A stretch of DNA of 64,000 nt from Sanghuangporus weigelae (Eukaryota > Basidiomycota > Agaricomycetes > Hymenochaetales > Hymenochaetaceae): positions 2,186,262 through 2,250,261 of the forward strand of contig CP137325.1 in NCBI GenBank assembly GCA_033182465.1. The letters run 5' to 3'. The position numbers and the translations under genes are program-made. Shown one piece after another: positions 1,075 through 64,000 of this stretch. How positions within the stretch are numbered: position 1 is the first letter of the stretch; every line of letters begins with the position of its first letter. The notes under the pieces are model-generated. The model did not search any database. It saw only the letters and a list, made by a program, of their open reading frames with translations, and was not told where the DNA came from.

Positions 1075-1436
1075 TGCCATCGGAATCGTACGAGCAAGTG
1101 GATCAGCCATTGGACTATAAGTCAAATGGGACTGTGACCCGGATGTCGCGCAACCGCATTTCCTGCAGCTTCGTCGTTGACGGCTATCAGATGACATTTG
1201 ATGCGACGTTGAACCCCGCAATGGCTCCATTCACATCGAAAAGCGCGTTCATATTGTACGGCGATGAAGACGACTTGACCGGAACGTACGCATACAGGGG
1301 CCATATCGGTCATACCGATTTCGAAATCATTATTGCGAGTGACGTGAAGACAATTGCTATCATCTCGGGGGAGCTCAACAATCCGCTTAACGCGAAGAAC
1401 CAAGTTCAGGGTTCCGGAACCTGGATGAGCACTTAG
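1075..1436 (+). CDS. Partial gene: lone copy of the DDLTGT beta-rich domain (copy A)
   Basis: An open frame ends at TAG 1434-1436. It encodes a roughly 105-residue domain also found at the C-terminus of the kinase gene (to 8123) and twice in the gene at 10050-11177. Shared landmarks are VDGYxMTFDA, a Tyr/Asp-rich strand leading into DDLTGT, a following YxGxxG, and the end GSGTWMST. The frame has no ATG before 1143. A branch-like CTAAT followed by CTAG at 1071-1074 suggests a splice acceptor with the exon starting at 1075. The upstream exons are not identifiable, so the gene is either 5' truncated or has highly divergent first exons. The function of the domain is unknown; alternating hydrophobic and polar stretches suggest a beta-sandwich or beta-barrel. 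Confidence 0.5.
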
Positions 1437-1939
1437 CAGTATGTTCAAAGATTCCTACTAAAGTTGCGACCTAAACTATTTTCAGTTTCTCTAGGAATAA
1501 TATCGAGTGTTCTGTCAGCTGTCGTGATCATGTATATTGCAATCGAACTGAGTTTATGAAAGAGCATACTATTGTACCTGCGATTGCGCTGCGTGACTTT
1601 TGAAATTCGAGTTACAGCACAGCAATTTACCTGAACTTGATCCCAAATCGGCATTTGTGTGTATCAAGTTTCTAATATCAAAGTGTTCAAGGTCGTGCTT
1701 CGATGGATGTACAGAGATCGAGTTGGGTTTCATATATCACTCACTTTTGGGGAGTGACAAATGGGAGTGATCTTCTCGATAGGAGTGAGACAGTGTTCGA
1801 AAAAAGCTGAACATTGAATATTCGATAGTCCGGGCCCAAATGCAATAGATTACTTCTAATTCCTAAGTAGATACATGCGTTTTGAAACATAGAATGGCGA
1901 CAAAACAAAGAGTAACTTCTGCAGTCCTAGTAACAGAGT
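1437..1939. other. Intergenic, no gene seen
   Basis: Convergent gap between the lone domain exon and the 3' end of the NLR gene. It includes three close GGGAGTGA-like direct repeats around 1755-1790. No coding or RNA feature is apparent. Confidence 0.5.
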
Positions 1940-4900
1940 TCAAGAAAGAAAGTTGATTCGTTCATGCACAGAAACCCAGCTCTTCCCACGATAGATACAT
2001 CTCCAATCGAGTCTCCTTCCATGCTCTGATACCTGATCAGTGTGTGATCTACTGAGATGCCGCAAGAAAGGACGATAATCTAAAGGAACCCATAATATCA
2101 AATCCCCACCAGGCATTCGGATCCATCCATCGTCTTCCATCACCAGAGGTCCAGGTTCAGGTCGAAACGAGGGAAGGACAGACTTTAAAGTAGGAGAAAT
2201 CATTGCAGGCCACCATGTAGGAATAGCCATGTAACAATGCAGCTCTGAGTCCCAAAACTCCTCTCCACGTCTAACCAGCTCCTTCTGATCACCATTGGAT
2301 GAATCCCAGATTATTAGCGTCCCGTCCGGAGAACCTGAACCAATTCTTTCTCCGCCCGAAGAGAACTCGACAGAGGTTACACTCGTTGAATGCCCTTTCA
2401 AAGGACCACAGATCCGATCACCGGTATCATAATTCCAAAGAATGATCTCCCCCTTTTCTGATGCAGAAACGATGCAATTTCCATCTGCAGAGAACGAAAC
2501 GGCCGTCACAGGACCGTCGTGGCCACGGAACGGCTTCCCGATCTGGCGGCAATCCGAAGTATCACAGACCCTGACGGTTCTGTCAGAGCACCCCAAAACG
2601 ATTTTACTGCCGTCCGTAGAGTATCGCAAAGAGTTAATGATGCAGCGTTTATTACCAGTGGTGACCGACCAGGGATCGCAAAGCGTCTCCCCAGTCTGAG
2701 CATCCCAAATCGTCAACGCGGAGCCCACTGAAGCAATCTTCCTTCCATCCGGAGAGAATTGAAGTGCTGAGACATAACCTGCGTTCATCTTGAAAGGTTC
2801 ACCTAATGGCTCCAGACTTTCTGCGTCCCAGACGCACAAAACTCCATCATCTGATCCAGATACCAATTTGGTTCCATCCGGAGAATACGCGACTGCACGA
2901 ACGAAGGACTTGTGACCTTGTTTAGGAGTTCCCATTGGAGCACCGGTCTGCGCGTCCCAAATCCTAATTGTACCATCTTCACGTCCGGATGCCATTCTCT
3001 CTTTATTAAGTGATTGGGTAACGGCGTTAGCAAATTTGACTGGATTCCAATCCCGCCGAGTGTCACGGACTACCCAAAATGCGTCCCGCGTCTCGATGGA
3101 CGTCTCGGTATCCTCGGAAAGTAAGGGGAAGTGGCATCGGAAATCACCTGCTACATGTTTGTGTATGAAGGAATTCTCAAAGCTCCACGACAATGCAGAT
3201 ACGTAGACATGCGGTGTGCTCGTCTTTAGGGCGTCATGAAAGTCGTCGAGAAAAGTTACCAATTCCGAGGCAGCGATAACAATGTCTGGATTATCCTAGG
3301 GAATCGGTTTGTTAGGTCAAAAGCCTACGGATTCGTTCAGTACGACTACTCACCTGGAAATATCCTCGACACTTCAGGAGCGTGTCCCGCCCTACGTCTA
3401 GGGCAGATAGTAGGCTTAGAATCTCGATATAATATAGAATTCTGGGAGAACACAGCAGGTCCGCCACGTAGTGCTGTAGTACGCGACCATCCCCTCCCTG
3501 AGTGGCGTGATCCATCCAGAACGAGCAGCTGTATTGCAAAATTTCCGAGATGTTTGATTTGATTCTGCACTCCAGGTCCGGGATGGCCTTGTTCTCAACG
3601 TATGACGATTCCAGTTCACAGATGTTGAACGTGAGATTGTCTCGCACCGTATCGAGGCAGCGTCGTGCAATCACGATATTAATCAAGCCGATGTCAACAG
3701 AGATCCATCCGGACCTGCTGCGACTTTGCATGAAACCAAGGAAGGACTTCAACGGGAAAATCAGATGAAGTGTGTGTCCCGAGTCCGCGAACAGTAAGGG
3801 TTTCAGAGAAGCAATGCCATCGTGGATCGCGGTGGCAGTAAGCTCAGGATGAAATGGTTCCAGGAAATGAACGAGAGCATTCTCGGTCAACGGTCTGTTC
3901 AGGGAAATGCAAGAAGTGACTGCCAGTACGTTCCGAGCTAGGGGCATCATATCGACGTCATGGCGCTGTTTGCCTAACACGTTGCTGATAAACCGATGGT
4001 AAAGCATGTCGCAAGCGAGGGGGTTTGACGGCTGATCGGAGGCGGAAGGCTTCTCGTCGGTTTGATGCCCAAAAGAAGATTGTGCTACAAACTCCTCTAT
4101 CTCTCCTCGTAGATCGTACGGAGGATAGTTGAGGACCAATTGATTAGCGTCGTTGAACTCGAAGCAATCTTCGAGTTCCGGTGGTCTTCTGCTGCACACG
4201 AACACTTTAAGCCAGGGGACCAGAGTCGAAATATCTCTGACAAAACCGGCAAGAGTTCTCCTCGCGGGTATAGAGTCGCATGATTCGTCCAGCCCATCAA
4301 GTACGATGATCAACTGTCGTTCACGAGGTGGCCGTGAGTCCGACGACTTGCCTTGGTATAGCTTATTTAAAGGGTTTCTGAATAGAAGTTCGAACTGAGA
4401 TTCCAATCCTGTGTGAATCGCACGTTCGTCGTGGCCTTCGAGGATGTCGAGAATCTCAGCGCGATAATCAGCATGCCATTTCGCTAGCTGATACGCTAGG
4501 GTTGGAATAAGCCTCTCCGCCTGTCGACGATCTCGATCATTCTTGTCCCAAAAGAAGCAAGCTGCAAGGCGGTCTTCTTCGTCAAGGACCCTCGCCACCG
4601 TGTGAGCTATGGTTGTTTTCCCGGTTCCTTCTTCTCCGTACAACCAGAAGAGACTGGAGGTTTGATAGCACCATTCCTTGACTTTGCAGAGTACGACCTT
4701 CCTCGTGTTCTCGAAACACGTTTTCCCCGGGTCGTAAAATGCATTAGGAACTGGGAGAAGCTGAGACAGAATGAGATGCTCAGTCCTCGAATCTACATAG
4801 ATATGTGAATGCGATTGAGTCGAAGGCGCGGGGACCCGTACCAATCTTCAGTGCCGTTTTCCATATCTCGACCCTGAGGCACCATTCGAAGGTCTCCTTC

Positions 4901-6109
4901 AGTTTCCCGAACTGCTCTTTATAAGAGTCTATCTCTCCCATTCGGTCTACAAGCAGATCACCTGAAAATTCAGCAGATTAGATTCCACGTTACCAGAACA
5001 TGGCAACTTCTTAGATGATACAACATACCTAGGACCGTCTCCGACGAATACTTAATTATCGATCGTGCGACTTTCTCAAAAAGCACGAGTATGTCATACG
5101 CCGTCCTTTCGACAATCGTGCTCCTCAGTCTGTCCGTGTGAAGATCCGTGAAGGGTAAGAAAGACGCTATATCGGAAATGAGACTCGTTGCCGCTGCATG
5201 GACTTCACGTTGCCGTTTGCACATCTAGACATAAGTAATTAGCACATAGGGTCATAGATCTTGAGGTCGACTAGCGTACTTCATACAACACAGTGACGGC
5301 CGAAACGGCAGCACTGACAGCAGGGTTAATCTGCTGAAATATGAGCCCATGAGTTGTATTCATTTCGTAAGTTACGTACCTCAGTCATGGGTTCGACAAA
5401 GCGGGAAATTCGGTTTAGAACATCGCAGGCCTTCCCGAGTCTTTCTAGAAACACTTTCATAGTGGATAAGCGTTGCTGTGATTCCTCCAGAAGGCGTCGA
5501 ATGATGTCGATAAACTAGAAAGCTGGATGGTCATCCACTAGTAGTCCAAAGGTTAGACAGTCCCTACCGGACCAGAATCCTTGCGCTCTACAATGACGCG
5601 AATTCTTGATGATCCAACGGAGTAGCAAGCATGTGTTGTATTTCCATCCAGCTCGCGTATATTAAAATCAGGAAAACCGATTTTCTTGTCCGAAAGAAAG
5701 AGGCGACGTTTCACAAGGCAGAGGCTAAGTTTCGACGTTGAGCTAAACTTTCTGCAAATTTGAAATTATTTTCACTATGTCCAAACGAAATCTATGAAAT
5801 CCGCTCACTGTTCAATTGCCCAGTCGATTTCTTCCCTTCCCCTATACTTCCTTGACTTGAAGATACGCCCGTCGTCCACCTTCAATATGACAAAGAAAGT
5901 GCCTTTCTTCTTTGCCTCTTCGAAGCTTGCCTTAATACCTGAATAATATCGACATCTATTCAAGCTCTACAACCAAGTCTAATCCACTGATCCTCGTACT
6001 TTGAACATGGATGAAACTAGGAGCAAAACAGATTAGCTGTCCAAGCAACTGCTGGAGTTGGTACTCACTCATTTTTTGATCCACACTGCGTCGATGCCGA
6101 GGGAGGCAT
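1940..6109 (-). CDS. C2-NACHT-WD40 NLR-type protein
   Basis: Ten exons: 6069-6109, 6000-6016, 5809-5938, 5568-5751, 5380-5514, 5280-5333, 5029-5224, 4842-4961, 3354-4792 and 1940-3295. All have GT-AG introns of 46-67 nt and give 1223 aa in frame. The N-terminus (first ~120 aa) reads like the C2-like domain of Agaricomycete STAND proteins. An alpha-helical linker follows, then a NACHT domain with Walker A GEEGTGKTT and Walker B LIIVLDGLDES. The last exon carries about six WD40 blades with WDAQTG-type ends, then a tail in the pattern GWI..GG.LILWVP typical of this family. It is probably a cytosolic ATP-switching sensor in non-self recognition or heterokaryon incompatibility. That role is known for NACHT-WD40 proteins such as Podospora HET-E and is inferred here. 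The gene is divergent from the kinase gene starting at 6475. The blades are diverged from each other rather than near-identical. Confidence 0.9.
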
Positions 6110-6474
6110 GAGAAATGTTTAGCTAAAACTCGGAGAAACAAGCGAAGACGAGTCTTTCGCTGCCTATGGATTCGATGCTCAGAGAGCCAGTTGCGCAATG
6201 GTGACTCCATAAGAGCTGCGAAAAACGAGGCCAACGGACAATCCGCGAGCCGGAGCAAGCAGGCACTAGAAGTCTCGTTATGGAGAACACGGTGTTCCTT
6301 GCAACTTTATAAGAGTTCATTGAGAGAAGCTTGAATTGCGAAAGCTCTGGGGATTACACGTTTACATAATGTGATTATCAGTATCTTCTGATTCTTCTCA
6401 CAGTATCGTGTTCCTGTCCTGTCGTCGGTCGCTTCAAATTTTATTTGTCTGTCTTCGAGCTATTTTTTTTTCTT
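6110..6474. promoter_or_regulatory. Shared divergent promoter region, NLR / kinase
   Basis: Only 365 bp separate the start codons of the minus-strand NLR and the plus-strand kinase. A TTATAAAG motif on the minus strand lies near 6303-6310. On the plus strand there is a pyrimidine-rich stretch just before the kinase ATG. Co-regulation is inferred from geometry only. Confidence 0.45.
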
Positions 6475-8123
6475 ATGCCGGATAGCTTACTGCAATGCCT
6501 CAGTGATGCGTCTCGGAGCGACGAAATCCATCAAGTCACGACTGGCAGCACTGTTTACCCCGACACCATTCGTAATCTCCTGGCGAAATGCAGGCATTTA
6601 GATCTTACAGGACGTGCGGTTGAAATCGGTGGGCAAGTCGGTCACGGTGGCACAAGTGATCTCTTTCTAGGCAGTTTGAGACTTGAGAATGGGAAGGAGT
6701 GCAGGGTGGCGGTTAAAAGATTGCGGATTTATGCAATGAGAAACGGGAAATCTGAAAAAGTGCGCTCTTCAATTTGACATGCCCATGCAGCGCATTGATG
6801 CTTCTTCCATACGATAAGGCTCTTGCAAAGGAGCTATACGTATGGTCAAAATTGAATCACCCCCGAATTTTACGTCTGGAGGGACTCTACGTCGATGGAA
6901 ATTATCCGCATCTGATATCTCCTTGGATGACAAACGGCACCGCTCTCAGCTATTTGGAAAGAAATCGATGTGCAGACGTTGTGCATATGGTGAGGATCTC
7001 CAGTTTTTAATCTTTCACGTGGGCTAACGTCTGATATAGGTCACTGGAATTACGGAAGGCATCGCATACTTGCACGCGCAGAAAATCGTCCATTCAGACA
7101 TCAAACCGGTACACATTCATTCTTCTTGATTTCAGGGCATATGTTGATCATAGAACATGATCAGGACAATGTCTTGATAGACGATTCCGGAGAACCACTT
7201 CTGTGCGACTTTGGGATGTCTCGGATGCTCGAAAAGCCCGATACATATCCGATCAGCAACACTACAACGACCGATGGAGTACGTGGCACCATAAGATATA
7301 TGTCGAAAGAACTCTTTAAGGAAAACGCATCTCTCACAGAGTCATCAGACATTTGGGCGTTCGGAATGACAGTCTACGTGAGCCGGGTTCATCCTTGCTA
7401 ATGAGAATGCCGCACGTAACAGCTCATTAGACTCTTCTTACAAGACATCAGCCTTACGAAAATTTGACGACAGAGGTGCAAGTCCTGCTAGCGATAGTGG
7501 ACGGAACGCTACCTTCCTGGCCGGAAGACATTGGAACGTGGTCGACTGCAAATCAATCCCTCTCCCGCATGTGCCAACGCTGCTGGGAGGAGCCGATGAT
7601 GAGACCGGATATCGGTACATTGTTAAGGGAGCTTCTACAGGTGAACAGACATGAGAGTCCCATCATCACAGATACAACTTGTGTGGAGCAACCACTAGAA
7701 TCGCAGGGAGCAGACAGAGATTCCGTGTTCGCACCGGGTAGAATCGCACTCATTGATACTTTATTTGGTCCTAATGCTATTCTTCTAGATGAAAATTTAC
7801 CTCGAAGAAGATTCGAAGCCACTGGGACTGCTCAACACATGTCATACGATAGGCTCAGGTGTGACTTTGCCGTAGACGGCTATCGAATGACATTTGATGC
7901 TTCGAATAGTCTGGGCCTGCCTCAGTTCTCTTCGAAACCCGCGCGAATTTTCTACGACGATGCTGACGAATTGACCGGAACGCAAGGCTACTCGGGCTTC
8001 GTTGGAGTCAATTCCTATACGCTCACTTTAGATAACGGGGCGGTGATCATCGGGCATCTCGACGCTTCACATCGGGAGAGTATGAACCGAATTTTAGGAT
8101 CGGGTATCTGGATCAGTACGTAG
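6475..8123 (+). CDS. Protein kinase with C-terminal DDLTGT domain (copy B)
   Basis: Five exons: 6475-6759, 6819-6989, 7040-7108, 7165-7377 and 7431-8123, giving 476 aa. The kinase domain has a Gly-rich loop (GHGGTSDLF), the VAVKRL lysine, a catalytic loop HSDIKPDN in place of the usual HRDxKPxN, DFG at DFGMSRM, and an APE-region equivalent SKEL. The ordering resembles the TKL-like kinases expanded in Agaricomycetes. After a ~60-residue linker, residues ~365-476 form the same beta-rich domain as at 1075-1436, ending GSGIWIST. Intron 1 ends in AAG rather than the more usual CAG/TAG, so that acceptor is the least certain. The His-Ser-Asp change removes the Arg of RD kinases but keeps the catalytic Asp, so activity is possible. 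The pairing with an NLR and the shared unknown domain suggest a signalling role in the same locus; this is inference. Confidence 0.82.
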
Positions 8124-10049
8124 AAAGTGTTCAGCACTATCTCCACTTGCATCATATATTTAAATTTGTCTTGCACTAATGATATGGAAGCGTTAAAAAA
8201 GGGATGACTCATCTCAATGGCAGTAAACTTACTACCTCCAGGAATGGCTCTGGTATAACTCTGTTTGAGAGAACAAAACTACTGACAGGCGTGTTACACG
8301 TGGTAGGCCGGATAGGCTAGATGTAAAATGAATCATACTAGCTGAAACGTTACAGCGTCGTGGTAAGTGCAAGGCTGCCTCAAAGTCCTCTTCAACATTA
8401 ATCTTCTCTTAAGAATGAATGAATTCCACGCACTGAACGCTCGCCAGAAGTCGTGTCCACCACGTGTAGCCGTCGTGAAGTTTTGCACCAAAACACGCGA
8501 AATACACTGCCTTCCCGGTTCATGGAACGTTGGAAGACGCCTCCTTGTGCTTGTGACCATTCCTAGCATTACGTTATCGATTAAATGCGTCTAATAATCT
8601 TGATTCTGGCCCTAATTATGAGGAAACGGAAATTTCGAGTCTGTAAGCGAATGTTCAACTAATTGACAGGATTCGTTTGCACGTTGCGAATGCGTTCGCC
8701 CGAGAAAAGATGCGATGTCGGGTTGGTATAAGTACGTGCCTGGAGTGCACTTGATACATTCTTTCTGGACTCCGTTCTCCCACCGGTACACGGTGCCTCT
8801 TCGTTAAGCCACTCGTCCCATAATGTCATGATATTTTGCACGAATTCTGCTGTTGCTCTTAATCAGTGATTTGTCGAGAGTATCTACCTTACCTGCATTT
8901 GCTCCTTTCCCAATCCACAGAAGTCAATAAATCAGAGTTTTACGGGTAATCAAATACTGTTGTCTTGATTGAACTGCCCTAGTGTTCAATACGATGCAAT
9001 TCTTCGATCAACTAAACATACACCTGGTGACAGTATCTGAATAGGAAGAATACGGACTCGAACCTAGATTCTTGGTATTTGTACCTTAAGACAAAGATAC
9101 CGCGAAGAAAATCAGCATCAAGAACTTGAAGATGTGCGTGGTCAGATTGGAGTTGCCGCCAGCCTCGAAACGATATACTCAACTTATTGATACTTGTGAC
9201 AAATGTGGGCAAAAGCCCAGGAGTGTATCTCAAAAGACACAGAATGCATTAAATATATATACTTGATCTCTCTCTTGCGCAAGATAATCTATCGGGTCTT
9301 GAGTCTGGCCCTTGGCTCAAAATAAGCCCCCCGAGGTACAGCGATCTAGAATCGGATTCGGCTGTGTAACCTAGACAATCAGATAAGGCATATCTAATCT
9401 CAAGAAGAACTCTGTACACGTTAGGCGAAAGAAGTTCATTCAGACTACTGACCCCGTTCCGAAGGAGTTGCACACACACTAATTTTCTCGATTTCAAGGT
9501 AGTCCAGTGCGAATCAGGCAGTCAGCAGATGTTAGTAAAATAGACGAAATCAATGATCCTGAAGATAAGCAGACTAATGTTGGTCAAAACCTTTATGCTC
9601 TTTCAGCCCATAAAGACCAATGGCATATATTGAAGTTGAACTAGAGATTCAACAAACAAATTCCACGTGACCAGTAAGCCGCGCAATATAACAATTTTCC
9701 CCCAACCCTGACGTCGCCATAGCCTCTTGCGCGTTAAAAACAAAGGCGAACCACTCCCTTGAGGTTTCTGAGGTCCGTCCATGTGTCAACCTGCTCGTGG
9801 CCTTCATTCGGCACCAGTGAACTTCAGCAATGGAGGTCCTGGCTAGGTTTGCGGAAGAAAACAAAAGACCTCTGGCATGTTAGGTGCGTTCGACACGCAT
9901 GTCCATAGGCATAGTACTGACCGAGTCAACAAAGAAACCTCGCGTATACGATATAAGATGCTTAGCGGCTTGCATACAGCTCGCCTCTCAGCTTCCTTCC
10001 GATTGTCCTCTTAGCGTGCTCTCCATCAAATCCACGTCGACCAACTCCC
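8124..10049. other. Intergenic, gene fragments only
   Basis: Several minus-strand open stretches occur (8659-8841, 9012-9233, 9249-9497, 9649-9864). They cannot be spliced into a recognisable product. Some read like worn coding sequence but show no motif I can name. A CT-rich tract at about 10060-10140 belongs to the next gene's first exon. Confidence 0.35.
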
Positions 10050-11177
10050 ATGTTTCTATTCGCCCTTTCCATACTCTTTTTTCAGCTACTACTACTGTTC
10101 ACTCTCATTATCCCTATTCTTTTTGCATTGTTTCCTTTTCCTTCGGATGATCCAGAGGAAACGATTTTTGTCGAGGTGCTGGTGACCACATTCCTTTAGC
10201 AAAATTGAAGCTGACCCCCACATTTCAGGTTCAAACGGTGGATGATGAAAATCCGGTATTTACCGCTAGACTTGCTTTACAATATCGCAAAGTCGTGCCG
10301 AAGTCAAGTTCTACTCCGTGAGTCTGACCTGCATTCTATATCAACTTGTATCCTGACATTTGTCCTCTTCACCAGCAGTATATGCGGCGGCCCATGGGAC
10401 GATCGATCCTTAAAAGAAGGATGCTCTGGGGCACCGCATTCATTAATACCTTCCGAAGGTAGGTATTCTCTGTATGGAGATTTCTACGTCTCTTACTATG
10501 TTGGATTAGCAGCTTGCCCGGACCCTAACTGGGAGCATTCTGCTTCTGGGCGAGTCGAGATACCTAGCAATAATGCCACACTCTGGACTTTCCGCATAGA
10601 CGAGAAGGATGTAATGTTCTGTGGGATCCTGGCTCCATCCATGCGTAGAGGTTCATCTATGGATGCAAGTATTCATTTCAACGACGTCGACGACCTTACC
10701 GGAACAAGCTATTTTCTTGGTCGATTTTCCACACCGTATTTCCTTATCAGGGTATTTTCATGCGGGACACATAAAGAGGTGGCACAAATCAAAGGCGAAT
10801 TCAAATTCCCCAAATACGAATCGCAAGGTGTATGCGATCAGCTAAGCGGCTGGGATGTCCATGCGCCGTCGCGATTTCATCACACCGATAGGATTCGATT
10901 GTCAGGACGCGTCGAGGTGCCTTCCTGTAGCAACACTCGTTGTACAATCCTCACTCACAAGGAAGAAATGATGGTCTCTGTGTCAGCATCCCCATCACCA
11001 TTTTTCCCAGCGAATGCCAACATCTCGAACGCGGACATGAGTTTTCACTCTCCTGGAGTCTCTGTCTCTTTCACATATCATTCAGTAACGCAGGTTGCAA
11101 TAGTAGAAGGGCACTCTAGACGATCCGTAACCGATGCGGTCGACGTTATCGGGGCGGGTCCTTGGGTCACGTCGTAG
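10050..11177 (+). CDS. Membrane-anchored protein with two tandem DDLTGT-type domains (copies C1, C2)
   Basis: Three exons: 10050-10175, 10229-10317 and 10376-11177, giving 338 aa. Residues 1-~30 are an uninterrupted Leu/Phe/Ile-rich segment, either a signal anchor or one membrane span. Two related ~100-residue units follow. C1 begins SGRVEIPS and has DDLTGT and an IKGEF strand. C2 begins SGRVEVPS, lacks the DDLTGT core, and ends GAGPWVTS. The unit starts match so closely that an internal duplication is clear. Compared with copies A and B, both units are more diverged and gained Cys residues (CGIL, CGTH, CDQL, CSNTRC), consistent with an extracytoplasmic location. Function unknown; a surface or secretory-pathway binding protein is the best guess. 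Confidence 0.72.
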
Positions 11178-15912: not shown

Positions 15913-17313
15913 TTAGCAAAGATTTTCATATGCTCCGGCTTCATACCGATCCCTAAGGAGGTGCAATGTTTCGGCAACGCCTTCATGGAGATTGCAATCA
16001 GATATATATAGACCTTTCAGTGCCGAAATCCTCCAGACTAGACCAGAGACCACCAGTGACTGGAAGAGGTACTGGGCATTAAACACAGAACACCTGACCA
16101 GACCGAGTGTCTTGACATTCCCGAGTGTGAGCTGCGCGGCTTCAATAAGAGGATGCCCTCCTTCAGTGATGTCGTTCGCGAGGCATTCCTCAAGAGAACA
16201 CTCTTCTAGCCAAAGACGCTCCAGATTGTTGCATCTTGCGAGACAGCCGAGTAGATCAATGTCAGCACACCGAGTTTTGTATAGGTCAAGTGTCCGAAGG
16301 GGTGGTGTAGAACGAATGAGAAATTGACGAGGAGAGTCCCATCGCTGTCCAACTGCGAAGTTTGCAGGTATTTGTCCGTCTAGCTCGAAGTTCTGAAGAG
16401 CAGGAGCTGATAGAAGATCAAGTACCAAGGATGGATCACTCTCCTCGCACCAACTGATCGCTAGCGTTTTAAGATGAGACAGCACGCACGGCTCTCCGCC
16501 ATCTCCTACATATGCCAAACGAAATGCAAGGTGGCGGAGATTCGGAAAGACCCTGAGGATATCCAAAACTTCCTCCATCGTCAAGCACATAGATTCCTCT
16601 TCGTCTCGCAAATCCAGATGAACGAGATAAGGCCCAAAGTCTCTGTGTCCATCCATCCCTAGTAATACGCACGGCCTCGTTGCCACGCGTAGTTGCAGGC
16701 TGTTAGGAGCAAAGTGCCTCGGGTCCTCATCAGCATCGTTTGTCCAGTAATATTCCTCAGAAACATAAGGGAACACAACGGGAACAGAAGGTTGAACTGA
16801 AACAGTCAGCGGCATCTCACCGGGACCTGAAGGACCCTTCAGATCAGCAGCAAGTTCAGTCAGCTCCAGAACCGCCGGAAGAATAGCATCAGGTTTCTTG
16901 AACGCGGCGAACTTGGTGAAGTCGACGTCAACGACGAGAGGACAGGTCTTCGAGTTGGCAATCCAGAGTAGCATGAGCTCTGTCGCGGACTCACAGTCAT
17001 GGCGTGGTGCACCGAGACTAGTGTATGTCCACAAAGCAGGTGTAGAGAAAACAACTTTCCGCCAGCGCTGACAGACGTGACTGAGGGTGAGAGGAGACAT
17101 CGGCGGCGCGCAAAAGCGGTCATGGAGTGTCGGACAGCACCAAGTGAAGATCTCGCTTAAAACTTCGTTTGGTAAGAGTGAAATGAGCTCTCCAAGTCTT
17201 TGACTTGCCGAGACGTTGATTGCTGAATTATCGTGATACGGAGAACTTGCGATGGCATTATCCTCGTCGTTCCTAACGCTATTGATCTTCGTAAGATCGG
17301 GTCCAGTGCTCAT
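15913..17313 (-). CDS. F-box protein with LRR-like C-terminus (paralogue 1)
   Basis: Single exon, 466 aa from ATG 17313; the frame opens further upstream but only at a GTG. An F-box lies at about residues 40-85: LLPNEVLSEIFTWCCP, then LSHVCQRWRKVVFSTPALWTY. This is the typical Agaricomycete layout. Leu-rich repeats with LDLR, LRHLAF and LKTLAI cadence follow to the end. It is a predicted substrate receptor of an SCF ubiquitin ligase (binding Skp1 through the F-box); the target is unknown. It is divergently arranged with a clear paralogue at 18047-19495 that shares domain order, the WCCPTxxDxxxxPPxSPxxLSHVC block, and the LIHLDLRDxE block. Confidence 0.88.
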   Translation of the reverse strand: MSTGPDLTKINSVRNDEDNAIASSPYHDNSAINVSASQRLGELISLLPNEVLSEIFTWCCPTLHDRFCAPPMSPLTLSHVCQRWRKVVFSTPALWTYTSLGAPRHDCESATELMLLWIANSKTCPLVVDVDFTKFAAFKKPDAILPAVLELTELAADLKGPSGPGEMPLTVSVQPSVPVVFPYVSEEYYWTNDADEDPRHFAPNSLQLRVATRPCVLLGMDGHRDFGPYLVHLDLRDEEESMCLTMEEVLDILRVFPNLRHLAFRLAYVGDGGEPCVLSHLKTLAISWCEESDPSLVLDLLSAPALQNFELDGQIPANFAVGQRWDSPRQFLIRSTPPLRTLDLYKTRCADIDLLGCLARCNNLERLWLEECSLEECLANDITEGGHPLIEAAQLTLGNVKTLGLVRCSVFNAQYLFQSLVVSGLVWRISALKGLYISDCNLHEGVAETLHLLRDRYEAGAYENLC

Positions 17314-18046
17314 ACACCGGGAAGGATTGGATCGAAAGCCGATCACAGATCTTGTAGAGAAAGTCAGGATTAGCGAACATTTCTATTTGTGAGCGGAACT
17401 CATTACCTCTGATAAACTATCTATAGGTAAGGAACGTAGGCGAGAAAAGAGTGTGAGCAGTCCGAAGACTTCAGATGTCCGAGCAGGAACAGACTGAGTG
17501 CGACTCGATGCATTTCATTTTGTTGTTTTTCCCTGAATAATCGTGCCAGACAAGTTTGCTAGTCAAGTGTGGATGTGTGAGTCTGAGGTTCAGTCCCGTT
17601 ACGAAGGCGCAAAGGAGGTGCAGTCAAAGGCTGAGTCAGCAACCATGTGATCGCGTTAGGGTCCGGACATCAGACGTTGACGAATGACGTCTATGTAGAC
17701 TCTCCGCCCTCGTAGTATCGGTTGAGTTTCCACATTTTCATGACCGAAACCTGGGGAATGATAAGCAGCTAACTTGACGAATGAAAATGAGGATGGTTCG
17801 AGGAACTTTGCTGGTTCCTGAACCTGCAATGCTCGCATCCGTGCTGACCTAGTTCTCAATTGACGAAACTCCACGCCCAAAATGAGGAGCCATAGTTCTC
17901 ACAGCTTTACACCGACTACCCTATCACAAGATTTTCCTTTCGTTCACTCGTTCATCACGCTCGTTTGGTGAGTAACCTAGAATCATGTCTACTTGGACCT
18001 CACTAAGGAAAGTGTAGAAATAATTTGTCGCTCTTTTCAACTCTGT
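17314..18046. promoter_or_regulatory. Divergent intergenic region between F-box paralogues
   Basis: The 733 bp between the two start codons hold the promoters of both F-box genes. No inverted duplication of promoter sequence was obvious by eye. A possible 5' leader ATG at 17985 heads a short upstream ORF ending at 18017, before the plus-strand gene. Confidence 0.4.
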
Positions 18047-19495
18047 ATGAGTCTCGGTGACTCTGATGATATTCATGCACAGTATCTAGAATCAGGAACC
18101 ATCAATGTACACAGAGGTGATCCTGCATTAGATCGGGAAGGCTGCCTATCCGACGTAAGAGCCTCGCTTTCCGGACAGTCCAGATCAATCGACAAGCTGC
18201 CCTTCGAAGTTCTTGCTGCAATATTCTCGTGGTGTTGTCCAACGGTTAATGACCACTACCGTGGGCCTCCCCTCTCTCCGGTGATGCTTAGTCATGTCTG
18301 TCGTTCATGGCGTCAGGCGACCATCGATACTCCAAGTCTCTGGACCTATTTGAATTTGACGGTCGCGTATTCGAGTGTGGGCGAAATGGAGAAAGCTTGC
18401 GACCAACTTAGGCTATGGGTTGAGAGATCCAACAATTGTCCGCTTCTGGTTGAGGTGGAGTTCGTTGAAAGCTCGCAACGTTGGCCAGCTGCGAATGTCT
18501 TCTACGACATGAAGAGGCTCATCAACGTTGCTCAGACATATAAGCCATCGCTAATCTCGGAAGGTATGGAGCTAAGGGCCGCACTTGATGCTACTTCAGT
18601 CTCTCCTCCACCTCCTGGGAACTACCCGCAAGCTATGGAGCAATACACTTGGGCAAAGGCTGGAGTCCGCCCGGATCGTCCTCTTCGGGGATCTGTACAG
18701 ATTCACGCAAATAGGCTTTCGGAAATCATGTTCGGACTCGAGGGTCATTATACGATCGGAAAGCACCTGATACATCTCGATCTGCGAGATCCGGAGGATG
18801 AAATCCGCCTTTCCGTCGAGGAGTGCCAGATTGCGTTGTCAGACTTCCCGGATCTGGAATTCTGTGCTCTTCGCATAGGCGAGTCGACAGACGAAGTTGC
18901 CGAGCCACTCGTGCTTCGGCGATTACGAACGCTGTCTCTAGCTTGGAGCGACCGAGTTGAAGTCGGGGGTCTATTGGATTCAATCACTGCGCCATCGTTG
19001 AGTGAACTCGAATTAAGAGGACCTCTCTTCCCAAGGGAGTTCTATCCCGGAAACCGATGGACTCATCTTCCGGAGTTACTACGCCGGTCCTCCCCAAGCC
19101 TGAAGCTTCTTACACTGGCTAACATGGATGGCACCACCATCGAGCTCCTTCGTTGTCTAGCACTGTGTCAAGGGCTTCAACATTTGTCTCTGGAGAGCTG
19201 TCGTCTGAACAAAGAGATAATGGACTCCCTTGAATTTGGTGAAGGCCTAACGCATGAACACGCACGGCGCACGATCCTGGGTCTCGACTACCTAGGTTTG
19301 ATTTCTTGTGAGGTCTTCGGACTCAATAACTTCTTGCGTGTGAGCCTGGAGACCCCATTCTGGGAGGAAGCCAATTTGAGCAGGCTCTACATCATTAACT
19401 CTGGATTCATATCGGAGAATGTTTTGGCTGCTATGAGACACCTCCCTCTGGACGAATTCGAGACAGATCCTGCTTTACTGGAAGACTTGTTTTAG
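18047..19495 (+). CDS. F-box protein with LRR-like C-terminus (paralogue 2)
   Basis: Single exon, 482 aa from the first in-frame ATG at 18047. The frame is open upstream without ATG, so an extra 5' exon is possible. The F-box at about residues 48-95 reads KLPFEVLAAIFSWCCP, then LSHVCRSWRQATIDTPSLWTY. The remainder is LRR-like and collinear with paralogue 1, including HLIHLDLRDPED and a final LYIINSGF block. Predicted SCF adaptor with unknown target. Protein divergence is considerable, so the duplication is not recent. Confidence 0.87.
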   Translation: MSLGDSDDIHAQYLESGTINVHRGDPALDREGCLSDVRASLSGQSRSIDKLPFEVLAAIFSWCCPTVNDHYRGPPLSPVMLSHVCRSWRQATIDTPSLWTYLNLTVAYSSVGEMEKACDQLRLWVERSNNCPLLVEVEFVESSQRWPAANVFYDMKRLINVAQTYKPSLISEGMELRAALDATSVSPPPPGNYPQAMEQYTWAKAGVRPDRPLRGSVQIHANRLSEIMFGLEGHYTIGKHLIHLDLRDPEDEIRLSVEECQIALSDFPDLEFCALRIGESTDEVAEPLVLRRLRTLSLAWSDRVEVGGLLDSITAPSLSELELRGPLFPREFYPGNRWTHLPELLRRSSPSLKLLTLANMDGTTIELLRCLALCQGLQHLSLESCRLNKEIMDSLEFGEGLTHEHARRTILGLDYLGLISCEVFGLNNFLRVSLETPFWEEANLSRLYIINSGFISENVLAAMRHLPLDEFETDPALLEDLF

Positions 19496-25033: not shown

Positions 25034-27843
25034 TTAGCCAACCCAGCGAACATGTTCCCAACCTTTTGCCGTCAACTGTTCCTTCCTGGTATTAACACCA
25101 ACACCATCCCAGCAAAACTTGTCATTACTCCCTCCGGGATAGCGGAACCAGGCACGTGGCTTGTACTTTTTCTGCATCTGCCTATGTGCACTTTCCTTCA
25201 TACGAGTGAAGACTGATTCATGCACGTAAATGAACTTGCCGTTTCCATTTCCGTCTTCGTTCCATGCATCACCGTAGATCTCGCGTCCTCGACCGCCATT
25301 TAATAAAGTCTTTTTCTCCTTGCGGTTTTTTCCTCCGCCAGTTTCCTGCAAACGAACGACGCGCGGTACTAAATCGATGACCAGCCAAATGATATTGCGC
25401 CAAAACTGGTCATGTATGGGAGAGAGGACGTCCGATGTGTCTTCGTCATGCTGAGTATAGTCGCCGTGAAGTCCAGGTTCTAGATCGAGAGGTGGATCAG
25501 GGTTAGGTGTGAAACGATGGAAGAGACGTCGGAGCACTTCTTTGACGACTCTCGGTGCACGTCTGACGATATCCTTGATGGATCGCCACGCATGTCCGAA
25601 TGCTTGTTTGACAGTTTTCCAGGCGTATCTGATCGCGTTTCCGATCGCGCCTTTGAAGTTGACAGGGAGCATGTGCCAGAAGAGAAGGCATACATACCAT
25701 AAAGGAGCAAGAATGACACGCAGTAGCATCCAGACACCCAGACACGTCAGCGCGATGAATCGGGCCAACAGGAATACGGCGAATCGGAGGATAGATAGAG
25801 TTATGTCCCTGACAGGACTTCCCGCCAGACCTCCATGTTTAGGCTGAGGTTTGGATTCAAGCTCGAGTCTGATTCTTCCGGCTGTGACTTTAGCTGCCGC
25901 GCCTATGCTGTTTATTGTATGTCTGGCTTCAGCAAGCTTGGCTTTCCGGCTCGTCAGCTCAGCTGTAATGTCCTCAAGCTCGGCTCTATGAATCTCGAGC
26001 TCGGCTCTACGAATGTCATCTCCGGTGATGCGGAATCTTTCCTCGACTCCACGGACTTCTTCTTTAGTCGCATTTTTGACTGCGGCTACTATCTTGTCTC
26101 TGGATTCCCTCCCGGCTGCATCTCCGGTCATGTCTCGAACCATACACACAGCTGCATCTCTGAATATGCGCGTGCATATGACTGCGTCAGTGACTTCATG
26201 ATCATTTGCGGCCGTGAATGCAAGATCGACTTCTGCGTCCACACGCTGAACCACTGCTTCTACCATCTGCAAATGGTCCACATTGTCGGCTATTGCTTGT
26301 TCCACATTAATGACTGCATGTGCGAATGCGTCATTGACTGTGGCTCTGAACATACCGGCACGCTCGGCTGCTTCTCTGGCTACATACTTCGCCGCCGCCC
26401 CGAACACACGATTGGCTGCTTTTTTGACCTCATCTCTGACCTGACCCGGTGCTGTTATGAGCACGTGCTCGGCTGCTTCTGTGATCGCAAATCTGGCTGC
26501 TTTCGCGACCTCATGCACGGCTGCGGCTCTGGCCTCATGCACGGCTGCGGTTTGGACTGCATACACGACATTGTTTCTGACCTGAAGTACGTCCGGGATT
26601 TCGGTCACGCCTTCGTAATCCGGATCGGGGATGTCTACGAATCCAATCCTTACCAGCCATGGCAAGTCAAACTGAATTCCGGTGTGTGCTTGCAAGCATT
26701 CCCTGATCATCCATCGAAGGGAGATTCGAGAGAGGGAATTACGAGTGCCGTTCCTGACCGCGCCTCCTCCAACGTCGGAATGACTCCCAGCAAACCAGAC
26801 TTCCTTCACATCGACATTCGCATTGACGTTCGTGTTGAAGTTGTCCTTGTAGTTTGGCCTGTAGTCAACACGGTGTTCGTCCAAAGCAAGTGCCTGACGG
26901 AAAAAACAGATGCCACTATCCTCGGGATCGATGAGTGGCAATTCCCTTCCAGACAATCCCACAGATGCAACAGTATCCCTAGGTCAGATATGATACAGTC
27001 ATTTATGCAATCATTTGCATTCTGTCATGATTTGGCGTACCAGAGTCCAAGGAATGTGATTTTCACTTCACGACAAATTGAAGATTTGTATGCACGACAA
27101 AGATCTCTCCCTTCTTTCCTGTCACTGCTCACAAAGTGCTTCCAAACAAATGGTATCTGTGCGACATTGCCTTGTGGCAGCAGACCGACCTTCTGCAGGA
27201 ATCCCGCTAAAACACGAGCCGTGTATGCACCCCGTGAGAATCCAAATAGGGAGACTTTGTCCCCTTCCTCATCTACATGCTTGTTTCAATTCAAAAAGTT
27301 AATGCATTTGCGAGTAATGAGAGCTTACAATACTGCATTAAAAAGCGGTATGCATCTGTCATCAAAACAGCGCGTCAGAATGCATGCCTAAAAATATCGT
27401 GGAAACATAGAACCTTGGACATGATGCTCGAGATTCCACGCAATCGCGGAGTCCAATTTTTTTGAAAAATAAATGACTGGCTTTGTGGCGAGCCAAGGAT
27501 GAGTGTATGTCCCTATTCCTGTCTGGTAATAGACTTTTTGATTCTTTCGATCTTTGCTGAGGCATCTAAAAAATTTCAAGGCGTTTGTGTCCTGTAAGCG
27601 AGAAGTATGAGTGAGTCGTCCATAGACGCAGAGGTAGCTGTGTCTTACATAATTAGAAACCTCATTCTCAGTCCCATCGAAACATAGGACAAGATGTCGA
27701 GGGCCATCTTCGCCCGCCCCGATCCTCGCCCCGGCCACGAACGTCCCTTCCGATAGAAAGTCCGTGTCATCTGTGACCAGATACCCGAGTCCGTCCTCCC
27801 ACGTCTCCGCAATGATATGGCGTAGAGGCATGTCTTTTTCCAT
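25034..27843 (-). CDS. DUF2235 (Tle1-like) alpha/beta hydrolase with helical insert and membrane segments
   Basis: Five exons: 27649-27843, 27414-27591, 27329-27355, 27041-27272 and 25034-26978, giving 858 aa. The domain opens with HLVLCFDGTENE and YYQTGIGTY. The nucleophile elbow is GFSRGAYTARVLAG, then FLGLWDTVASVG, HR and GSHSDVGGG: all hallmarks of DUF2235, the catalytic fold of T6SS Tle1 phospholipases. Residues ~380-560 form an Ala/Val/Glu-rich, probably coiled-coil helical segment with repeating AAxHEA/EAAE patterns. A hydrophobic region of two to three spans (LRFAVFLLARFIALTCLGVW onward) follows, and then a basic tail. It is probably a membrane-associated lipid or ester hydrolase. The substrate is unknown. 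A second, degenerate relative lies at 61483-62444. Confidence 0.88.
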
Positions 27844-38631: not shown

Positions 38632-40734
38632 TGTGAATCTAGCACGAGCCAAATTCTATATTTGAGAACGTTCAGAGAGCTTCTACACGATAGCGTCGAT
38701 AAGAGACGAGCAATGAGCATAAGAGTCAATCGGGGCAAAACTGACCTAAAAAAGAGTTGAGCCGTTTCAGGCCGTTGAAAGCTAGACTTAAGTTCGGCCC
38801 TGTTCAATATGAGCGGAGCTTGAAAGTACCATCACTTGGCGAGCACAGGCACACGCATATTCAACAATAAACTATCTAATCAAAATGAAGGAAGGAACTC
38901 AAAAGATCTGTGATTGATCTATGACTTCCTTTAAGTTCGTTTAATGCAGACTCAGGCCATCCGACCAGGAATGGTACAGGATGAGATCCAGATCAATTCC
39001 GCTGAGCGTACCTAACTACGCGGACTGTTTATCAAAACGCTTGACAACTTATAGCGTCTCTGGACTCCCCCGACAAGGACCTCAGCGTCACCTACGATGA
39101 CGAGCGTTCAAGGGATTCCCTCCAAGCTCATGATACCGAGGGACAAGCATGCGGATGAAATGTAAGAGACACGAGAAGTTATTTCTGATCCCAAAGGGCT
39201 CGATGAACGCAGGTTGTGCATCAACCGCATGAGCGGCCTGAAACGGCGTGAGCGTATCGTGTTTGGCAGTTACGTTAATAGACTTCCCTTCAAATCAGTG
39301 GAAACCGCTCACATCGGTCCAAGGAGATGGTGGAACGAGGGCTGATGGCATGTCCAGCAAGTTTGGAATGGACTCCTCGTACTTGACCAAGCAGCGTACC
39401 AGTGCTTGCAGAATTACCGACAACGATTACTTGGGATGGAGAGAATCATGATTCATGATCCCGGCCTATTGATAAGTAGTTGTTTCCTCGATCAATGCAC
39501 ATGGGAACTGTCCCCTAGTCGGTGAGACAGGGACAGAGACAGATGTCAGACTGTACTATTCAAGATTGAACGACCAGTTAACAGACGACAAGAATCGAGG
39601 AATCCGCGCCCGGCACATTCGAGCACCGACGAGTTTAATGCGCTGACGCCATCGTGTATCCTTGTCGGGTTCTTGTTCGACCGGGATAAGTGTACGTTCT
39701 CTGTGATCCACAACCAGGAATCCGAGCTGCATCGATCCCTGCTTTATCCGCCCATTCTGTGGCTTTTCCTGCGATGATCTCTAGGGCACCGTCTACGTTG
39801 CCTCGAAGTTTTGATCTGAAATACGGAGGAAATACAACCGATCGATTCGATCCACCCTGGCATCGATCTGTACTCGAGTGAGCATATTATGTGACACAGA
39901 AAATCCAGATATTTTCACGTTCTTTCCGTGTCGGTCAGACATGCACGAATGAATCGCACCGTCATGCTTTCATTAACGATCACGACTTGAGCAGACGTTG
40001 CGCAGAGAAGGCTTTTGACCACCTAACGTGGAAAGTATATTATAATGGTCCCAAGCTGGAACCACAAGTAAGACCTCTGGATGGACGAAGATAAGTTAGT
40101 GCGCGCAACAGGACATAGTTAATTTTGTCAATGAAGCTGGTACTGGTACCAGGCGGAGTCAAGTACCTTTCTCGCTTAAAGTGATACTTACTTTCTCACT
40201 CGTTTGATATCCCCCTTTTCACGACGCCCTCTGTGGGTAACTGTCTGGTTAAGTAGCCACCAGCTCCATAGACTTTGTATCCTTACGAGATGGCCGAGAA
40301 ATATCGTCCTGGCTGTTTTTTCCTTTTAGCGTTGCAAGTCCATGCGACCTGTCTTGCGGCTCAATAACAATCGCGTGTAGTATACTCGAGTCAATCGCTA
40401 ATTGCCTTTCCAAGTGCATGAACGAGGCTGATATATGTATTCGGATCGAATGCCCTTTCCACGATCGTAGAACTGCGCAACAATGTGGAAAACCATGTTC
40501 TCAGAGTTCATGCCTCGATAAGACCGTAGCGTTGAGGGCAGAACCGCGGGTATATATTTATGGTGAGTACGCGTTACACAGGAGGTCTGGAAACAAGCCG
40601 AACCAGTTCAATGATTACAACATCGCAGGGACCAAACAGAACATCAACGAAATCTCAAAAGCAAGAACCTTTGTGAACTCATCAGCACATTCTTTGATAC
40701 GTTAAGAACAGGGAATATAAATATCCGACATCGA
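38632..40734. other. Intergenic, no gene recognised
   Basis: About 2.1 kb with only short, motif-free open frames on both strands. Confidence 0.4.
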
Positions 40735-63843: not shown

Positions 63844-64000
63844 TTAGGCTTTAGGGTTCGGCTTAGGGTTAGGCTTAGGCTTAGGGTTAGGCTTAGGGTT
63901 AGGCTTAGGGTTAGGCTTAGGGTTAGGCTTAGGGTTAGGCTTAGGGTTAGGGTTAGGCTTAGGGTTAGGCTTAGGGTTAGGCTTAGGGTTAGGCTTAGGG
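63844..64000 (+). repeat. Telomeric array with mixed TTAGGG/TTAGGC units
   Basis: The last ~157 bp are hexamers, dominated by the 12-bp unit TTAGGGTTAGGC. There is one consecutive TTAGGGTTAGGG pair near 63941 and a variant TTCGGC near 63857. G-rich repeats reading outward on the plus strand are as expected for the right end of a chromosome. Regular alternation with TTAGGC is unusual for a basidiomycete, whose canonical repeat is TTAGGG. The array runs to the window edge, so its length is unknown. Confidence 0.9.

What the first reader, a model, noticed from the sequence alone, without database searches (positions are those of the whole stretch)
1075..11177. Candidate undescribed locus: NLR flanked by copies of one unknown domain, one fused to a divergent kinase
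Within 10 kb, a C2-NACHT-WD40 sensor is head-to-head with a kinase, and an unrecognised beta-rich domain occurs four times: alone at 1075-1436, on the kinase C-terminus, and twice in a membrane-anchored protein. Repetition of one domain around an NLR suggests a shared ligand, a decoy, or a sensor-transducer module. Sequence shows the architecture; the functional link is inference.
Basis: partly seen in the sequence, partly recalled or inferred. Interest (0 to 1): 0.85.

Follow-up and report, generated by a model that had tools for sequence, protein, structure and literature searches.

The report
Vap-like barrels beside a fungal NLR
In a mushroom-type fungus, a small barrel-shaped protein domain that is predicted to fold like virulence proteins of the horse pathogen Rhodococcus equi sits next to an immune-type receptor gene and is fused to a protein kinase; the trio occurs a second time in the genome, and both copies show signs of being kept functional.

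Summary
The window carries a NACHT-WD40 NLR (1229 aa; weak Goodbye hit), a head-to-head kinase with a C-terminal ~105-aa beta domain, a stand-alone copy, and a protein with a hydrophobic N-terminus holding one clear and one badly decayed copy. By predicted fold the domain is Vap-like: an AlphaFold2 model from window copies (pLDDT 88.7) has Rhodococcus equi Vap chains as its only confident PDB matches (best TM 0.70). It has eight strands, a helix between strands 4 and 5 and a C-terminal GxGxW, but no Pfam Vap match. A 2019 review already says that Vap homologues occur in fungi; the kinase fusion and NLR-linked trio were not met in my paper searches. The trio [single barrel - NLR - kinase-barrel] recurs on another contig; five stretches compared have dN/dS 0.16-0.23. 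The domain is not generally tied to NLRs: 2 of 6 genomic clusters lie at an NLR, and these are the two copies of one block. Most likely: a fungal Vap-like family of binding modules, recruited once into an NLR-kinase module. Ligand and functional link are inferred.

The parts
1076..1436 (+). Stand-alone Vap-like barrel (last exon; domain 1113-1433); upstream exon and start codon not located
   Evidence: Open frame 1038-1436; homologue on C11 at 74% aa identity, dN/dS 0.18; acceptor context similar in both copies
1940..6109 (-). NLR gene, 10 exons, 1229 aa: N-terminal region with weak Goodbye hit, NACHT (NPHP3_N), WD40 repeats
   Evidence: Pfam; gene model without internal stop; C11 copy NACHT 74%, WD40 77% aa
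6110..6474 (.). Intergenic stretch between the divergent NLR and kinase start codons; possible shared promoter
   Evidence: Gene models; promoter function not tested
6475..8123 (+). Tyrosine-kinase-like protein kinase, 6 exons, 459 aa, with C-terminal Vap-like barrel
   Evidence: PF00069 7.8e-41 and PF07714 4.1e-39; top PDB rows EGFR (a two-domain chain), RIPK1 and Eph kinases
7789..8123 (+). Exon that carries the kinase's Vap-like barrel (domain 7809-8120)
   Evidence: Gene model with linker intron 7738-7788; 39% identity to the stand-alone copy; C11 copy 83% aa, dN/dS 0.16
10050..11177 (+). Protein of 338 aa, 3 exons, N-terminal hydrophobic segment (about 30 residues, judged by eye), then two barrel repeats
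   Evidence: Gene model without internal stop; no Pfam match at E<=1
10533..10841 (+). Third barrel copy, diverged
   Evidence: 32.8 bits to a profile built without it
10887..11174 (+). Fourth copy, badly diverged
   Evidence: 4.2 bits, 8 of 2000 shuffles as high; pairwise score with copy 3 reached by 1 of 2000 shuffles
63850..64000 (+). TTAGGC/TTAGGG repeat array at the contig end: telomere-like, so the locus looks subtelomeric
   Evidence: Sequence; window ends at the last base of contig C8

Best explanation
The repeated domain is a fungal family of Vap-like beta-barrels, found in small proteins and as add-on domains. In one ancestor it was recruited into a three-gene module: a stand-alone barrel, an NLR with NACHT and WD40 repeats, and, divergently transcribed from the NLR, a tyrosine-kinase-like kinase with the barrel at its C-terminus. 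Proposed mechanism (inferred): the barrel is the binding part, for an acidic lipid, membrane surface or protein ligand. It places or gates the kinase, and the stand-alone barrel competes for or bridges the same ligand. The NLR watches this kinase-barrel partner and triggers the response, probably cell death, when it is disturbed. Shown here: domain family, predicted fold, gene anatomy, block duplication, selective constraint. Inferred: ligand, NLR-kinase contact, output.
For: Model from three window copies: pLDDT 88.7, pTM 0.82, eight strands and a helix between strands 4 and 5 (the best of five models, whose mean pLDDT ran 88.7 to 41.0). Foldseek on PDB: ranks 1-4 and 10 are R. equi Vap chains (7b1z TM 0.70; probability 1.00 for these five); in the 50 rows shown the best other probability is 0.44 at TM 0.24. 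VapB is described as an eight-stranded barrel of two Greek keys with a helix joining strands 4 and 5 (PMC4089522, passages), Vap relatives as ending in a glycine-rich stretch plus Trp (PMC4118825, section 3.9); GxGxW is in 15 of 16 aligned copies. A review says obvious Vap homologues occur in fungi (PMC6852188, section 11). The trio recurs on C11 in the same order; dN/dS: single 0.18, WD40 0.19, NACHT 0.22, kinase last exon 0.23, kinase barrel 0.16, Fisher p for dN<dS 4.2e-6 or lower in each. Membrane activity of some Vaps: PMC10100859 (abstract and discussion).
Against: No sequence-level match to the Vap family: 0 of 16 copies hit PF05526 in Pfam at E<=1 (one copy hit Ntox25 at 0.015 and one Big_9 at 0.48); no genome match (whose own controls also did not ring); no Vap chain among the 9 PDB sequences up to E 10. 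Foldseek E-values of the Vap rows are only 1e-3 to 5e-2. Linkage to an NLR is a single ancestral event; 4 of 6 barrel clusters have no NLR nearby. The NLR has no detected barrel. The glycine of Vap strand 3 that helps make the 'bald spot' is not conserved (14 of 16 copies lack Gly in strand 3). No expression or interaction data.
Confidence: 0.5

Rival explanations
1. Neighbours by accident: a dispersed barrel family happens to lie next to an NLR and a kinase in a fast-rearranging subtelomere, and the block was then copied whole. Each gene works alone.
For: 4 of 6 barrel clusters are far from any listed NLR; NLR-kinase adjacency is not enriched (4 of 53 NLR loci within 5 kb, the two block copies included, 1.8 expected, p 0.11); nearest relatives of this NLR on C2 (42-47% identity) lie more than 200 kb from a barrel cluster; large segmental copies on C8 and C11.
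Against: Order and orientation of the three genes, and constraint on the stretches compared, kept in both copies to dS about 0.65; one barrel is physically fused to the kinase.
Confidence: 0.3
2. Integrated or stand-alone decoy: the barrels imitate a host target of an incoming effector, and the NLR guards them.
For: Repeated copies around an NLR; a recently copied pair of barrel fusions on C11 has dN/dS 1.53 in the barrel against 0.72 in its N-terminal part.
Against: That excess is not significant (bootstrap 0.74-4.12; Fisher p 0.17); the barrels of the block that could be compared, single and kinase barrel, are under purifying selection; the NLR carries no detected decoy domain.
Confidence: 0.1
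3. The barrels are the executioners: membrane-active proteins released or phosphorylated by the kinase when the NLR fires.
For: Vap proteins differ in membrane binding and permeabilisation, VapA strongest (PMC10100859); one local barrel protein has a hydrophobic N-terminus.
Against: VapB, the best structural match, was the least membrane-active of the three in that paper; no toxic phenotype known; the C2 cluster at 3205-3211 kb has no listed NLR or PF07714 kinase within 138 kb.
Confidence: 0.07
4. The Vap resemblance is analogy: a small eight-stranded barrel that resembles Vap without common descent.
For: No sequence match to Vaps; aligned identity 14-17% in the five Vap rows.
Against: Two models from different alignments point to the same family; the strand order of Vap is described as unusual or unique (PMC4089522); helix position and C-terminal GxGxW agree; a review reports fungal Vap homologues.
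Confidence: 0.1

Closest known systems
Vap proteins of Rhodococcus equi (VapB 7b1z/4cv7, VapG 5aeo, VapD 4csb; Pfam PF05526)
   Same: Predicted eight-stranded barrel of about 105 residues, helix between strands 4 and 5, C-terminal GxGxW
   Different: No sequence-family match; strand-3 glycine lacking in 14 of 16 copies; eukaryotic, some fused to a kinase or other domain
Vap homologues of fungi and other bacteria mentioned in print (PMC6852188, section 11; it cites Valero-Rello et al. 2015, not held, not read)
   Same: Vap-type proteins in fungi
   Different: The passage names no species, sequence or architecture, so identity with this family is untested; it mentions no NLR or kinase
C2-Goodbye-like NLRs of Agaricomycetes (PMC9815663, passages)
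   Same: NACHT and WD40; weak Goodbye hit in the expected place
   Different: C2 not confirmed here; linked to barrel proteins and a barrel-tailed kinase
FslK kinases, expanded in Agaricomycetes (PMC3937382, abstract and passages)
   Same: Kinase domain with EGFR, RIPK1 and Eph kinases as top PDB rows
   Different: C-terminal Vap-like barrel on its own exon; FslK placement not tested by a tree
Two-gene fungal sensor-executioner clusters (PMC10197012, passages)
   Same: Tightly linked receptor and partner gene
   Different: The NLR does not carry the domain repeated on its partners; the partner is a kinase
Two uncharacterised proteins of lymphocystis disease virus-China (BFVD Q677V4, Q677Z1)
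   Same: Predicted fold match, probability 1.00 and 0.99
   Different: Viral; function unknown; only the listing was seen

Membership tests
R. equi Vap family (R_equi_Vir, PF05526) | Eight-stranded barrel with a helix between strands 4 and 5 | tested here: met
   AF2 model, (prediction, not a solved structure)
R. equi Vap family (R_equi_Vir, PF05526) | Two Greek keys, strand order 41238567 | tested here: inconclusive
   Alignment to 7b1z at TM 0.70 over 108 columns suggests it; strand order not read off coordinates
R. equi Vap family (R_equi_Vir, PF05526) | Match to the family profile | tested here: not met
   0 of 16 copies at E<=1; none, but its controls also did not ring
R. equi Vap family (R_equi_Vir, PF05526) | Glycine-rich C-terminus followed by Trp | tested here: met
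   GxGxW in 15 of 16 copies; description from PMC4118825
R. equi Vap family (R_equi_Vir, PF05526) | Bald-spot glycine on strand 3 | tested here: not met
   14 of 16 copies have no Gly in strand 3 (counted from the printed rows); equivalence by strand number (PMC4118825), not by overlay
R. equi Vap family (R_equi_Vir, PF05526) | Secretion signal | not tested
   No signal-peptide predictor was run
Fungal NLR (C2-Goodbye-NACHT-WD40) | NACHT-type STAND domain and WD40 repeats | tested here: met
   PF24883 91.3 bits; WD40 139.3 bits, 6 stretches
Fungal NLR (C2-Goodbye-NACHT-WD40) | Goodbye-like N-terminal domain | tested here: inconclusive
   PF17109 15.1 bits against cut-off 24.8
Fungal NLR (C2-Goodbye-NACHT-WD40) | C2 domain | tested here: inconclusive
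   No Pfam C2 at E<=1, no PDB match; the segment looks C2-like to the eye only
Tyrosine-kinase-like kinase (FslK) | Complete protein kinase domain with catalytic residues | tested here: met
   VAVK, HSD, DN, DFG present (motif meaning recalled)
Tyrosine-kinase-like kinase (FslK) | Placement in the FslK clade | not tested
   No reference sequences were at hand for a tree
NLR-effector pair with shared motif (recalled concept) | Same motif on NLR N-terminus and partner | tested here: not met
   tblastn of the window with the barrel queries at E<=10 lists no match in the NLR exons

The most novel reading that the evidence does not exclude
Vap-fold barrels are an old, general immune-interface module: in mushroom fungi they act as ligand- or lipid-binding domains on kinases and small proteins watched by an NLR, and the bacterial (and fish-virus) Vap-like proteins act by entering this kind of interface in their own hosts.
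Probability: 0.12. Interest if true: 0.88.

Novelty: new variant of a known kind. Interest (0 to 1): 0.58.

Why it matters
The Vap fold is known from bacterial virulence proteins whose exact mechanism was called unknown in a 2019 review (PMC6852188, passages). A fungal family with the same predicted fold, fused to a kinase and kept for a long time beside an NLR, gives a eukaryotic setting in which the barrel's binding function can be tested. It also offers a candidate partner module for the little-studied NLRs and tyrosine-kinase-like kinases of mushroom fungi.

Tried and rejected
Sequence-only routes to the domain failed: Pfam, PDB profile search (best E 0.72), single-protein scans of viral contigs (9 pattern matches, none confirmed) and genome contigs (67, none confirmed). 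These scans use exact short patterns and reach close relatives only. The own-genome search for PF05526 was empty, but so were its 14 controls, so it says little. General NLR-kinase adjacency was tested and not found enriched (4 of 53 within 5 kb, 1.8 expected, p 0.11; 4 against 3.4 at 10 kb). Barrel clusters near an NLR, 2 of 6, give p 0.0035 at 5 kb and 0.014 at 10 kb under uniform placement, but the two are one duplicated block, so this is not independent evidence. Positive selection on the barrel of the C11 fusion pair: dN/dS 1.53, not significant. Other recent pairs with ratio above 1 (C2 pair 1.20, C11 150855/169830 pair 1.25) are far from significant, and one member of the latter has an in-frame stop; the C8 pair 2077016/2185015 has 0.33. 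The barrel tree has 3 of 12 well-supported inner branches and a very long branch for the third window copy; it was used only to see that the NLR-linked copies and the C2 copies tend to group (89/96 each). Rows dropped before counts: C1:2718816 (E 0.32), C11:1704002 (E 0.28) and the partial C2:3209726 (E 0.07) were left out of the 18 copies; the fourth window repeat was left out of the tree and counted with the third as one copy; C11:150855, C2:189615 and C11:180475 (each with a stop in at least one listing) were counted among the 18 but not put in alignment A1. Genome counts are lower bounds by the tool's own statement. A first reading of the third gene as F-box-like came from a wrong frame and was dropped after the splice model. 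Rfam and ARAGORN listed nothing in the window. The original report it cites is not held (a search for it, listed only papers around it).
Full report
What is in the window. The window is the last 64,000 bases of contig C8 (2,250,261 bp) of an unnamed 33.9-Mb genome of 13 contigs. Its right end is an array of TTAGGC/TTAGGG repeats, so the locus lies about 53 kb from what looks like a telomere. The Agaricomycete placement is my inference from gene content (NLR type, kinase type); no call named the organism.

Gene models. Hand-made splice models with GT-AG introns give three genes without internal stops. The NLR runs 6109 to 1940 on the minus strand, 10 exons, 1229 aa, with NPHP3_N/NACHT and WD40. 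Its N-terminal 319 residues give only a sub-threshold Goodbye match and no C2 match. The kinase runs 6475 to 8123, 6 exons, 459 aa. It matches PF00069 at 7.8e-41; the top rows among solved chains are EGFR (a chain with two kinase domains), RIPK1 and Eph kinases. It keeps the catalytic Lys, Asp, Asn and DFG; the arginine before the catalytic Asp is Ser (HSD). Its C-terminal barrel sits on its own last exon (7789-8123) after a linker intron. In the C11 copy an apparent stop in the linker falls in the stretch that aligns with this intron; splice sites there were not checked. The third gene runs 10050 to 11177, 3 exons, 338 aa, with a hydrophobic N-terminus. The stand-alone copy at 1076-1436 looks like a last exon after an acceptor ending at 1075, in a sequence context similar to that on C11; I did not find its start codon.

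The domain is a family. Protein searches of the whole genome give 18 copies, after the three weak rows named under Tried and rejected were dropped, in 6 clusters: C8 2185015-2196791 (this locus), C8 2077016, C11 150855-184546, C11 1580082, C2 3205081-3210835 and C2 189615-191839. At least two (C11 150855 and 180475) have an in-frame stop. A search with the third window copy found no further place. On C2 the copies lie in open frames of about 100-200 aa; gene models were not made there. On C11, two copies (184264 and 1580079) are fused to a shared N-terminal domain with no Pfam match above cut-off. Three of the four window copies are solid; the fourth is doubtful by profile and modestly supported by pairwise shuffles.

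The fold. Pfam and PDB sequence searches found no family. An AlphaFold2 model from an alignment of three window copies reached pLDDT 88.7 and pTM 0.82, with eight strands and a short helix between strands 4 and 5. Against the PDB, ranks 1-4 and 10 are R. equi VapB, VapG and VapD, TM 0.58-0.70, Foldseek probability 1.00, E 1.1e-3 to 5.2e-2; among the 50 rows shown the best other probability is 0.44 at TM 0.24. An earlier and poorer model from a four-copy alignment also listed Vap chains at probability 0.95-1.00 (ranks 8, 11 and 15), behind ModE and transporter chains at TM 0.24-0.28. The Vap barrel is described as two Greek keys with strand order 41238567 and a helix between strands 4 and 5, unusual or unique among barrels (PMC4089522, passages). 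Vap-like proteins of other bacteria share a glycine-rich stretch followed by Trp at the C-terminus (PMC4118825, section 3.9). Our copies have GxGxW in 15 of 16 cases. The strand-3 glycine of the 'bald spot' is not conserved (14 of 16 lack Gly there), and there is no PF05526 match. I therefore call the domain Vap-like by predicted fold, not a shown member of the Vap family. In the viral structure library two uncharacterised proteins of lymphocystis disease virus-China also match (probability 1.00 and 0.99).

What is in print. [quoted passage not shown] The former is PMC4118825, in which the word stem 'fung' does not occur; the latter is not held. So a fungal Vap-type protein as such is not new. 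Of the papers that my searches listed (open-access library only) I opened ten, mostly as passages or abstracts; none of the parts seen describes a Vap barrel fused to a kinase or placed beside an NLR. The other listed papers were seen as listings only.

The duplicated trio. On C11 the same three genes lie in the same order in an inverted block: kinase-barrel 171387-173046, NLR with NACHT 174801-176237 and WD40 176287-177633, single barrel 177987-178376. Codon comparison of the two blocks gives dN/dS 0.18 for the single (105 codons), 0.19 WD40 (449), 0.22 NACHT (476), 0.23 kinase last exon (89) and 0.16 kinase barrel (111), with dS 0.54-0.79. Each differs from dN = dS towards constraint (Fisher p from 8e-33 to 4e-6). 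The other kinase exons and the NLR N-terminus were not compared. So the trio was probably copied as a unit a good while ago and the parts compared stayed under selection. The barrel copies beyond the trio differ between the two places in position, orientation and fusion.

How far the linkage goes. The genome has at least 53 NLR loci (54 stretches). Two of them have a barrel within 20 kb, and these are the two copies of the block. Of 6 barrel clusters, 2 lie at an NLR; the others are 113 kb to 2.8 Mb away. The closest relatives of this NLR outside the pair are on C2 at 42-47% identity, with no listed barrel within 200 kb. Relatives of the kinase outside the pair reach 43% in the last exon, and none lies in a barrel cluster. 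Kinases in general are not enriched near NLRs (4 of 53 within 5 kb against 1.8 expected, p 0.11). The association is therefore one evolutionary event that has been kept, which suggests a functional unit but does not prove it.

Mechanism. I hold it most likely that the barrel is a binding module. For the bacterial proteins the published work supports membrane activity that differs between members, with phosphatidic acid strengthening VapA action (PMC10100859, abstract and discussion), and a loop cavity in VapB has been proposed as a ligand site (PMC8329714, abstract). On the kinase, such a module would place or gate the enzyme; as a small protein it would compete for or bridge the same ligand; the divergently transcribed NLR would then guard the kinase-barrel partner. 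Only the anatomy, the predicted fold, the duplication and the constraint are shown.

A possible sign of rapid change. The two C11 fusions lie in a segmental copy of about 87% DNA identity. Their barrel parts differ more at non-synonymous than at synonymous sites (0.188 against 0.123, ratio 1.53), their N-terminal parts less (0.72), but the excess is not significant. It would be worth testing with population data.

Noticed in passing
C8 right arm, about 2004-2077 kb and 2103-2185 kb (outside the window, left of it): Kinase matches and the two barrel singles 2077016/2185015 recur at offsets of about 99-108 kb; 88% DNA identity over 5.5 kb where compared: probably a large tandem segmental duplication near the chromosome end.
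   Followed up: partly
C11:150855 and C11:180475: Barrel copies with an in-frame TGA: decayed members of the family.
   Followed up: no
C11:147000-166999 (L033, L034): Long open frames that look like retrotransposon gag and polymerase stand between barrel copies; identification by eye only.
   Followed up: no
C2:3207366 and C2:3210835: Almost identical single-barrel genes in inverted orientation 3 kb apart (96% aa).
   Followed up: no
window 25037-26983 (-): Open frame that matches the C-terminal third of a T6SS Tle1-like phospholipase catalytic domain (PF09994, 1.6e-21).
   Followed up: no
window 15916-17382 (-) and 17981-19492 (+): Two divergent F-box-like open frames.
   Followed up: no
window 40685-42035 (-): A second WD40-repeat gene; the NLR's WD40 exon also matches it weakly.
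   Followed up: no
BFVD Q677V4 and Q677Z1: Two small proteins of a fish iridovirus share the predicted Vap-like fold; listing only.
   Followed up: no
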